A stretch of 31,318 nucleotides of DNA from a virus, in the IMG/VR virus record IMGVR_UViG_3300032047_000075, positions 1-31,318 of that record; one strand, given 5' to 3'. Numbering within the stretch: the stretch's first letter is position 1; the number at the start of each line of letters is the position of its first letter. Under the pieces are notes generated by a model. That model searched no databases. It worked only from the letters and a program-made list of their open reading frames with translations, and was not told the origin of the DNA. Shown piece by piece: positions 1 through 25,102 of the stretch. Position numbers and translations under genes: made by a program.

Positions 1-1782
1 ATCATCTGCTTGTACTATATAAGCGTCACCTTTAGTGTTGCCTGAAGAAGGAAGATTGCTTGTTTGAGCAACTTGTCCTTCCATAGTAATACCAGTACCT
101 GTACTACCTGTAGGTCCTTGTGAACCTGTTGCACCTTTAGAACCTTGTGGGCCAGTAGGTCCTGTACCCCCCGTAGCTCCTACTTCTCCTTTTTGACCTT
201 TGGCTCCTGCAGAACCTGTTGAACCGCCTGCTCCAGTCGCTCCTTTATCCCCTTGTGGGCCGGTTGGGCCGGTTGGGCCTGTACCACCTGTAGGTCCAGT
301 TCCCCCAGTTGCGCCTTTTGCACCCGTAGAACCTGTGTTACCTACTTCTCCTTTTTGGCCTTTAGCTCCTGCGCTACCTGTAGAGCCACCTGCTCCAGTT
401 GCACCTTTGTCACCTTGTGGGCCTGTAGGTCCAGTTCCGCCTGTTGCGCCTTTATCACCTTGTGGGCCTGTAGGTCCAGTTCCGCCTGTAGCACCTTTAG
501 CTCCAGCAGCTCCGTCATCTCCATCTCCACCCGCTGGGCCTGTTGGTCCGGTTGGGCCTGTTCCGCCTGTAGCCCCTTTAGCTCCACCAACACCTACTTC
601 ACCTTTAGCACCTGTTGGGCCTGTTGGCCCCGTAGCTCCTATTTCGCCTTTTTGTCCTGTTCCGCCAGTTGGACCCGTAGGTCCAGTTCCGCCTGTAGGG
701 CCTTGTGCGCCTGTAGCTCCTTTTGCTCCATCTGCGCCATCATCTCCATCCCCACCTGCTGCACCGGTTGCACCTTTTGCACCTTGTGAACCTGTTGAAC
801 CTGTCGGTCCGGTTGGACCTGTTCCGCCTGTAGGGCCTTGAGCACCAGTGGCACCTTTATCTCCATTACTACCATTTGAACCAGCTGCGCCGGTTGCACC
901 TTTAGCTCCACCAACACCTACTTCGCCTTTTGCACCTGTTGGGCCTGTAGGTCCTGTTGGGCCGTCTGGTCCTTCTGCACCTTGGGCACCAGTCGCTCCT
1001 TTTGTTCCTTGTGGGCCTGTTGGACCTGTCGGTCCGGTTGGACCTGTTCCGCCTGTAGCTCCTTTGGCTCCTTGTGAGCCTGTTGGACCCGTTCCGCCTG
1101 TTGGGCCTGTTCCGCCTGTAGCTCCTTTGGCTCCTTGTGAACCTGTTGGTCCGGTTGGTCCATCTGGTCCGGTTGGACCTGTTGATCCAGTTACACCTTT
1201 TGCTCCTTGAGGGCCATTCGGTCCAGTTGGTCCATCTGATCCAGTAGGACCTGTGGGCCCTGTACTACCAGTTGGGCCTTGAGCACCGGTTGCGCCTTTG
1301 TCACCTGTAACTCCTACTTCGCCTTTTGCCCCTTGTGGGCCAGTACTACCTGTAGGACCTTGAGCACCAGTTGCTCCTTTTATACCCCCTGCAGGTCCTT
1401 GCCATTCTCCAGAGCTATCAATTACTTCAGAACCAGCAATTTTTACACCAGTTACGTCTAATACTCCTGTTTGGGAGTTTCCGTTAAGTTGTGGGAAGGC
1501 TTCTAGAACTGCTGCTGTAAGACGTAAATCTACAGCATCATTTTGGGAGAATGCACGTGCGGAAGTCCCGTCCTGAGCACGTACGACGGTAATCGTGTTA
1601 CTGCTTATACCAGTAACCTTTACGATTTCTTTATTTGTTCCGTCGTCAAACGTAACAAAAAACGACTCTCCGCTATTTAATGATGGGAAAACTGAACCAT
1701 CTGTGACACCTATACTTGTGGCACTATTGGTTATGTTACCCGATAGGGTTGTAGTCGCATTGTTCTTAAAAACAATAGCCAA
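1..1782 (-). CDS. Collagen-like tail fibre protein, C-terminus cut by window edge
   Basis: The frame is open from a TTG start at 1782 to the window edge (594 codons, no stop). TTG was chosen because an AGGAG ribosome-binding site (1790-1794) lies 7 nt upstream and no ATG is better placed. Residues 1-128 form a globular, non-repetitive head of the type found at the start of phage tail-fibre proteins. About residues 129-568 are uninterrupted Gly-X-Y triplets (many [12 protein letters not shown]), expected to fold as a collagen-like triple-helical shaft. The last visible residues ([19 protein letters not shown]) match a motif common in phage fibre C-terminal domains. Its place at the end of the late gene run suggests an adhesion fibre or tail needle. 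The exact attachment point is unknown. Confidence 0.85.
76..1398 (-). repeat. Gly-X-Y coding repeat tract with near-identical 27-54 bp subrepeats
   Basis: About 1.3 kb of imperfect 9-bp periodicity encodes the collagen-like shaft. Larger blocks recur almost exactly; for example the stretch near 1055-1095 is repeated near 1109-1149, and 412-450 is echoed at 457-495. The high similarity of blocks suggests expansion by slippage or recombination, so shaft length may vary between relatives. Confidence 0.8.
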
Positions 1783-24360: not shown

Positions 24361-24542
24361 AAATATATCGCTGAGACATCTTCTCCTACTATCACCACAG
24401 ACCCCACTCCGACCCGATCCCATTCTACTATCACCTTTCTCCGTTTCAACTTTTGGAACCTTGTTTTGGTTTTTACCCGCCGACCTCGTACCTCGGCCCA
24501 CGCTTCTCTGTCTCTTGTTATTAACTTTATATGGAGCATACT

Positions 24543-24731: not shown

Positions 24732-24788
24732 CTACTATCATCAAGCTAGGGAGCAAGTGCAATCATCTTGTTCCCTCACGCTTGAGAA

Positions 24789-24884
24789 TGTTCCGTTGGT
24801 TCCACGGCTCTAACCCAATGTGGAACCATGTCGTGGAACCACGACTATCGTGCATGCCTACTGGATTTGCATACCAACGGAACA
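24789..24884. repeat. 12-bp inverted repeat with short palindrome downstream
   Basis: Arms TGTTCCGTTGGT (24789-24800) and ACCAACGGAACA (24873-24884) are exact inverted copies around a 72-bp spacer that carries two of the TGGAACCA boxes. A second small palindrome, CAAAGC/GCTTTG with a 2-nt centre (24912-24925), follows. Together they resemble the repeat content of phage replication origins or repressor-binding clusters. Confidence 0.6.
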
Positions 24885-25073
24885 GAGTTGGTTCCGCGGT
24901 TCCGCGTGAAACAAAGCCTGCTTTGCTAACGGACAACGAACCACGGTTATTGGATATAGATTCTCTTAACCTATAACTAAGTGGAACCAGTGGAACCACA
25001 CCTATAACCACGCATCGTTACAAGGTTTATCGTGTTCCATGATATTTGGAACCAAGTGGAACCAGTGGAACCA
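24797..25073. repeat. Array of TGGAACCA/TGGTTCCA 8-mers (origin or operator candidate)
   Basis: Exact copies occur at 24797-24804 (inverted), 24821-24828, 24834-24841, 24982-24989, 24991-24998, 25047-25054, 25057-25064 and 25066-25073, with a near copy at 24888-24895 (TGGTTCCG). The last groups have 9-10 bp spacing, so the same face of the helix is offered, as in iterons or tandem operators. The palindromic core TGG-NN-CCA is dyad-like. The array fills the 411-bp gap between plus ORFs and ends 3 bp before a hairpin. No ORF of credible composition lies in this gap. Confidence 0.75.
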
Positions 25074-25076
25074 CAA

Positions 25077-25102
25077 CAGTCAGCCGTGTCCCACGGTGAC
25101 TG
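25077..25102 (+). promoter_or_regulatory. TCC-triloop hairpin 1, upstream of the first plus-strand gene
   Basis: Lower stem CAGTCA (25077-25082) with TGACTG (25097-25102), single G bulge at 25083, upper stem CCGTG/CACGG, and loop TCC (25089-25091). It sits 40 bp before the ATG of the 131-aa gene and directly after the repeat array. It shares its geometry and triloop with hairpins at 25522, 26421 and 27210. The template-strand loop would read GGA. Confidence 0.7.

What the first reader, a model, noticed from the sequence alone, without database searches (positions are those of the whole stretch)
24789..25102. Dense TGGAACCA array in the divergent region: candidate replication origin or operator cluster
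At least eight exact 8-mers (plus a near copy) in 277 bp, several at 9-10 bp spacing, combine with a 12-bp inverted repeat, a palindrome at 24912-24925, and a hairpin at the edge. The gap separates leftward late from rightward early genes, where phage origins and repressor sites usually lie.
Basis: partly seen in the sequence, partly recalled or inferred. Interest (0 to 1): 0.7.

Follow-up and report, generated by a model that had tools for sequence, protein, structure and literature searches.

The report
Phage replication origin: twelve-site initiator array
A 285-bp stretch of non-coding DNA in a marine phage carries twelve copies of a short protein-binding word in a fixed layout that dozens of related phages keep even when they change the word, which marks it as a very likely origin of DNA replication.

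Summary
The array is real. TGGAACCA occurs 8 times in 277 bp and nowhere else in the record. The true unit is an asymmetric site, RTGGAACM(A). Twelve copies (5 reverse, 7 forward) lie at 24790-25071, at offsets 0-, 9-, 32+, 45+, 101-, 109-, 193+, 202+, 244-, 258+, 268+, 277+.

In 22 aligned relatives, 93% of site-core columns are invariant, against 12% of the columns between sites. Of 61 distinct arrays scored, 57 match all 12 sites (null maximum 5). The word drifts in concert in distant relatives (GGAACA, GGTACAC) while the layout stays. The cultured Pseudomonas phage KPP25 (31% identical replication protein) has two comparable arrays of TGTTACG. In the ten elements checked, the most A+T-rich tract lies between site pairs 3 and 4.

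Best reading: the phage replication origin, bound by a phage initiator, most likely its primase/SF3-helicase protein; that gene lies outside this 31-kb fragment. That the array is a specific binding platform is well supported. That it is an origin, and which protein binds, is inferred. ParABS, RNA, CsrA-sponge and terminase-site readings fit worse. An operator cluster remains the main rival.

The parts
24789..25074 (.). Whole conserved element: twelve GGAAC-core sites in fixed order and spacing (proposed replication origin)
   Evidence: Alignment of 22 relatives; site-core columns 93% invariant versus 11.5% between sites and 0% in flanks; 57 of 61 distinct arrays match all 12 sites, null maximum 5
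24790..24803 (-). Site pair 1, reverse sites with cores at 24790 and 24799 (9 bp apart)
24822..24839 (+). Site pair 2, forward sites with cores at 24822 and 24835 (13 bp apart)
24891..24903 (-). Site pair 3, reverse sites with cores at 24891 and 24899 (8 bp apart); left border of the proposed melting region. In several relatives the second site is part of TGTTCCACGTGGAACA
24912..24925 (.). Short dyad (CAAAGCCTGCTTTG) kept in several relatives with compensating base changes (CAAAAC..GTTTTG, CAAAC..GTTTG)
24931..24942 (+). Degenerate pair GGACA..GAACC (GGACCGTGGACC in many relatives), at the edge of the A+T-richer tract
   Evidence: counterpart GACCGTCGACCG in group B
24945..24979 (.). A+T-richest part of the element (71% here, 73% mean of 22 relatives): proposed unwinding region
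   Evidence: the A+T-richest 40 bp begins in the same inter-site gap in all ten elements compared; not unusually A+T-rich for this 59% A+T record
24983..24996 (+). Site pair 4, forward sites with cores at 24983 and 24992 (9 bp apart); right border of the proposed melting region
25034..25038 (-). Site 9, single reverse site (GTGTTCCA), within 8 columns invariant in all 22 relatives
25048..25071 (+). Sites 10-12, three forward sites with cores at 25048, 25058 and 25067 (10 and 9 bp apart)
24732..24788 (.). Left edge: CTACTATCATCA followed by an imperfect inverted repeat; relatives keep the word and show inverted repeats of other sequence. Role unknown, possibly a border or terminator
   Evidence: by eye for the hairpin

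Best explanation
The element is the phage's origin of DNA replication. A phage-encoded initiator binds the twelve asymmetric RTGGAACM sites as a multi-subunit complex, and oppositely oriented site pairs 3 (reverse) and 4 (forward) flank an A+T-richer tract that is melted first. The most likely initiator is the phage's own primase plus superfamily-3 (SF3) helicase protein (829 aa in relatives; PrimPol-type N-terminus suspected, DUF5906/SF3 helicase in the middle, possible winged-helix C-terminus). It would load in opposite orientations on the two halves and hand over to the phage family-A DNA polymerase, in the manner of T-antigen/E1 or P4 alpha origins. Shown: a conserved, specific, fixed-geometry array whose word changes in concert between lineages, and an A+T-richer middle. 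Inferred: that a protein binds it, that it fires replication, and which protein binds.
For: Array far above chance. Geometry kept to within a few bp in groups A, B and L221. Cores invariant while the sequence between them varies. The word drifts in concert: GTGGAACCA (A), TGGAACA (B), GGTACAC (L221 and L092/G010), which points to a lineage-specific trans-acting binder. The neighbouring GGAACCTTGT element does not drift, not even in L092. The cultured phage KPP25 has two arrays of TGTTACG/CGTRACA, each around a tract of 90% A+T or more in a 60% G+C genome. The A+T-richest 40 bp begins between pairs 3 and 4 in 10 of 10 elements. One cluster per genome in the marine relatives. The early genes shared by the array-bearing genomes, KPP25 included, are replication genes: PolA, the SF3 primase-helicase, a SNF2-type helicase and a RecB-like nuclease. 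The SF3 protein matches the NrS-1 primase-helicase structures.
Against: No replication or binding data. The window itself lacks the replication genes (fragment). The tract in the window is not unusually A+T-rich for the record (0.72 against a median best of 0.75). No DnaA box in the array. The motif change could not be tied to one protein, because gene phylogenies are broadly congruent; only 9 residues of the primase-helicase are shared by L221 and G010 and absent from A and B, against 26 in a comparison pair. The predicted C-terminal domain is low confidence. For the closest studied AEP-SF3 replicons the published proposal is a stem-loop origin, not iterons (PMC4234260).
Confidence: 0.66

Rival explanations
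1. Operator or enhancer cluster: a phage or host transcription regulator binds the twelve sites to control the early operon (and perhaps the leftward late genes).
For: In the marine phages the array lies just upstream of the first early ORFs. Arrays of asymmetric sites are also used by regulators.
Against: No conserved regulator gene beside it: the nearest candidate, the RHH-like protein, is in 4 of 40 loci and the first downstream gene (ORF 25143) in 5 of 40. No sigma-70-like promoter at the array. In KPP25 one copy lies inside the early region and a second in the late region between same-strand genes. An A+T-richer tract between inverted pairs is not needed for an operator.
Confidence: 0.17
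2. Packaging site bound by the small terminase (TerS), whose gene is nearby.
For: The array lies 0.3-1.2 kb upstream of terS in most marine relatives.
Against: The helix-turn-helix region of TerS is nearly unchanged between genomes whose word differs (A, B, L221, G010). KPP25 arrays lie about 4.4 kb and 36 kb from terL.
Confidence: 0.07
3. Partition centromere (ParABS-like) of a plasmid-like phage; in several relatives site 6 reads TGTTCCACGTGGAACA, which resembles a pseudomonad parS (from memory).
For: The palindrome is present in L093, L095, L101 and L104.
Against: No ParB_N in 9 records and no AAA_31 ParA in 10 records, while both searches ring in control genomes. The palindrome is absent from other relatives and the other sites are single half-sites.
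Confidence: 0.03
4. A structured RNA, for example a CsrB-like sponge with GGA motifs for the phage's CsrA-like protein.
For: A CsrA homologue (PF02599, E 4.7e-13) is encoded next to the primase-helicase in relatives; the sites contain GGA.
Against: Sites occur on both strands. In L221 all sites read GGTAC, which removes GGA, with the same layout, while its CsrA-like gene is kept. No Rfam match and negligible covariation (inverted identical sites make this test weak).
Confidence: 0.03

Closest known systems
Bacteriophage P4 ori and alpha protein (primase-helicase binding iterons through a winged-helix domain; described in PMC4234260)
   Same: Array of short binding sites and a single phage protein combining primase and SF3-type helicase
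   Different: P4 alpha has a bacterial-type (Toprim) primase and a different word; binding here is not shown, and the layout (twelve sites around an inner A+T-richer tract) is not known to match
SV40 T-antigen / papillomavirus E1 origins (SF3 helicases assembling at inverted short sites beside an A+T-rich tract; general knowledge)
   Same: Short core sites in opposite orientation flank the region expected to melt; SF3 helicase
   Different: Unrelated virus; double-hexamer loading here is an inference from site orientation only
Nitratiruptor phage NrS-1 primase-polymerase (PMC7102993)
   Same: The helicase part of the candidate initiator matches it by sequence (E 1.3e-32)
   Different: NrS-1 depends on an 8-nt recognition word with only two genomic copies and is its only DNA polymerase; here there are twelve sites in one cluster and a separate PolA
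pRN1 / phage BIP-1 replicons (AEP primase, SF3 helicase, winged helix; PMC4234260)
   Same: Same general protein plan is suspected
   Different: Their proposed origin is a large stem-loop without iterons
Pseudomonas phage KPP25 (Kochitakasuvirus) intergenic arrays at about 26.38-26.83 kb and 58.25-58.55 kb
   Same: Pairs of 8-9-bp-spaced sites in both orientations around an A+T-rich tract; homologous SF3 protein (31%) and PolA
   Different: Different word (TGTTACG), somewhat different spacing, two copies; no origin was mentioned in the one KPP25-relative paper checked

Membership tests
Iteron-type replication origin | Multiple short repeated sites in one non-coding cluster | tested here: met
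   12 sites in 285 bp, one cluster per genome in the marine relatives
Iteron-type replication origin | A+T-rich unwinding region next to the sites | tested here: inconclusive
   Position constant in ten elements and strong in KPP25 (90-93% A+T), but the window's tract is not exceptional
Iteron-type replication origin | Sites bound by a cognate initiator encoded by the same replicon | not testable with these tools
   Needs binding assay; concerted word drift is indirect support
Iteron-type replication origin | Supports autonomous replication / replication starts there | not testable with these tools
   Needs plasmid or read-depth experiment
P4-alpha-like initiator system | Primase and SF3 helicase in one phage protein | tested here: met
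   PHROG DNA primase matches and Pfam DUF5906; NrS-1 primase-helicase structures; gene is in relatives, outside the window
P4-alpha-like initiator system | C-terminal winged-helix origin-binding domain | tested here: inconclusive
   Predicted order of elements fits, but mean pLDDT is 60 and the best Z is 3.8
ParABS centromere | ParA and ParB encoded by the replicon | tested here: not met
   No PF02195 and no PF13614; fragments limit this for some records
CsrB-like sponge RNA | Repeated GGA motifs in one RNA strand | tested here: not met
   Sites on both strands; GGA lost in L221 with layout kept
   4 of 40 array-bearing loci

The most novel reading that the evidence does not exclude
A previously undescribed class of phage replication origin, shared by a widespread group of about 60-kb marine phages and Kochitakasuvirus: a twelve-site platform in which oppositely oriented site pairs load two SF3 primase-helicase rings on either side of a melted tract, with the binding word and its initiator co-evolving while the layout is frozen.
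Probability: 0.4. Interest if true: 0.7.

Novelty: new variant of a known kind. Interest (0 to 1): 0.55.

Why it matters
Origins of most phages with fused primase/SF3-helicase proteins are unknown, and for related AEP-SF3 replicons the published proposal is a stem-loop origin (PMC4234260). An array with frozen geometry and a drifting word gives a natural set of matched and mismatched site/initiator pairs, so initiator specificity can be tested directly, and KPP25 offers a cultured phage in which to do it. It also gives a sequence signature for finding origins in uncultured marine phages.

Tried and rejected
RHH-like protein 25743 as binder: 4 of 40 loci. ORF 27421 (259 aa) as binder: no match in several array-bearing loci (L181, L192, L195, L196, L210, L211). 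ParABS: no ParB_N or AAA_31. Small terminase: recognition region unchanged where the word changes. Known RNA: no Rfam match; RNAalifold covariation term -0.3. CsrA sponge: GGA lost in L221 with layout kept. DnaA boxes: chance level in the record, none in the array. GC skew: confounded with the strand switch. Linking the word change to residues of the primase-helicase: 9 residues shared only by L221 and G010, not more than expected from background. AlphaFold of the whole protein was poor (mean pLDDT 47.9) and of its C-terminal part weak (60.1); no Foldseek match with E <= 0.001, VIA-align best Z 3.8. DNA search of the region against phage records: no match. Aeromonas phage phiA008 has the homologous protein, but no clear array was seen in the gaps inspected.

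Full report
OBSERVATION. The window is a 31,318-base linear virus record. TGGAACCA occurs exactly eight times, all between 24797 and 25073, and not elsewhere. Dinucleotide shuffles of 24789-25102 give a mean of 0.03 copies and a maximum of 2; the most frequent 8-mer of any kind in 1,000 shuffles reached 4. The 8-mer is not the real unit, though. Aligning 22 relatives shows twelve GGAAC cores, seven forward and five reverse, and the information profile over 264 instances is R-T-G-G-A-A-C-M-(A), asymmetric, with five core positions near 2 bits. In this alignment 93% of the 60 core columns are invariant, against 11.5% of the 226 columns between cores and none of 125 flanking columns.

GEOMETRY. 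Taking the first core as zero, the window has sites at 0-, 9-, 32+, 45+, 101-, 109-, 193+, 202+, 244-, 258+, 268+ and 277+. Other members of group A, a group B genome and L221 keep this within a few bases. Scanning every fetched locus with this template (each site allowed 7 bp either way) gave 61 distinct arrays, of which 57 matched all twelve sites, three matched eleven and one nine; reversed sequences never exceeded five. These arrays are not phylogenetically independent.

DRIFT OF THE WORD. Loci brought in through terS and through the primase-helicase include lineages in which the word differs throughout the array while the layout stays: TGGAACA in group B (L075, L076, L078, L083, L090; also G017 and G020), and GGTACAC in L221. 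L092/G010 has GGTACAC with a related but not identical layout. A separate conserved element 162-165 bp upstream of terS in group A, and about 590-640 bp in groups B and C, GGAACCTTGT, is present in 49 of 49 loci tested and does not drift, even in L092. A general mutational bias is therefore an unlikely cause; a lineage-specific binding protein is the simplest one. This is inference.

CULTURED RELATIVES. The SF3 protein of these phages has full-length homologues in the Pseudomonas phages KPP25 and phiR18 and in Aeromonas phage phiA008 (about 30% identity). KPP25 has the same general plan, leftward packaging genes and rightward early genes, and two non-coding arrays of TGTTACG/CGTRACA, at about record 26.38-26.83 kb and 58.25-58.55 kb. 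Each has a reverse pair 8 bp apart, then a tract of 90% A+T or more in a 60% G+C genome, then forward sites 9 bp apart. The two copies are about 32 kb apart, about half the 64-kb genome. In phiA008 no clear array was seen in the gaps inspected.

THE MIDDLE TRACT. In ten elements compared, the A+T-richest 40 bp begins in the gap between the third (reverse) and fourth (forward) pairs. In the window it is 71% A+T over 24945-24979, which is not unusual for this record; the argument rests on position and on KPP25, not on the value here.

WHICH PROTEIN. The window ends before the replication genes. In the 58.4-kb relative G002 the early operon encodes a family-A DNA polymerase, an 829-aa primase/SF3-helicase (DUF5906), a SNF2-type helicase, a RecB-like nuclease and a CsrA-like protein. 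Array-bearing relatives with usable sequence, KPP25 included, share the polymerase, the SF3 protein, the helicase and the nuclease (some records are fragments). The SF3 protein matches the NrS-1 primase-helicase structures by sequence. It is the best candidate because SF3 helicases of this kind act as initiators elsewhere (general knowledge; PMC4234260, PMC7102993). Direct support is lacking: the residues shared by the two GGTAC lineages are few and not above background, and the predicted C-terminal domain is compatible with a winged helix but weak. My confidence that this protein is the binder is about one half.

ALTERNATIVES. The RHH-like protein is in 4 of 40 array-bearing loci. ParB_N and AAA_31 are absent from the records searched. 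The terminase small subunit keeps its helix-turn-helix region where the word changes, and the KPP25 arrays are far from terL. A CsrA sponge is disfavoured because L221 lost every GGA while keeping the layout and its csrA-like gene. No Rfam family matches and covariation is negligible, with the caution that inverted identical sites pair trivially. An operator cluster is the main rival: no promoter-like site was found at the array, downstream genes differ between relatives and KPP25 has a copy in the late region, but none of this excludes it.

COMPARISON AND NOVELTY. It works most like an iteron origin served by a fused primase/SF3-helicase, as in phage P4. It is not filed as a P4-type origin: the initiator-binding and replication criteria could not be tested and the winged-helix criterion is inconclusive. 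For AEP-SF3 replicons related in plan, a stem-loop origin without iterons has been proposed (PMC4234260), and NrS-1 has only two copies of its recognition word (PMC7102993). I found no description of this array in the papers searched, but the library holds only open-licence papers and the search was limited. I rate it a new variant of a known kind, interest 0.55.

LIMITS. All evidence is comparative sequence evidence. Many relatives are fragments. Host and lifestyle are unknown; one relative sits in a Neomarinimicrobiota MAG, which may be a binning accident.

Noticed in passing
window 24455-24464 (and 49 terS loci): GGAACCTTGT lies 162-165 bp upstream of terS in group A and about 590-640 bp upstream in groups B/C, once or twice in 49 of 49 loci, and does not change where the array's word changes. 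A separate cis element, perhaps linked to late transcription.
   Followed up: partly
L234:43750-44046 (KPP25 record about 58249-58545): Second copy of the KPP25 array, about half a genome from the first, between two same-strand late genes.
   Followed up: partly
L137:13621-13806 (G002 52121-52306): 61-aa CsrA homologue (PF02599, E 4.7e-13) encoded between the DNA polymerase and the primase-helicase in relatives.
   Followed up: partly
window 24732-24788 and 25075-25102: Both edges of the array carry inverted repeats whose sequence differs between relatives; the left one follows a conserved CTACTATCATCA.
   Followed up: no
window 200-1210 (minus strand): Low-complexity repeats (GP-rich and QA-rich in alternative frames), collagen-like on the minus strand, probably a tail fibre or spike gene.
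   Followed up: no
L240 (PBPT01000002.1): A 60.8-kb contig in a Neomarinimicrobiota MAG encodes the same SF3 protein (77%) and a 9-of-12-site array; possible host hint or binning accident.
   Followed up: partly
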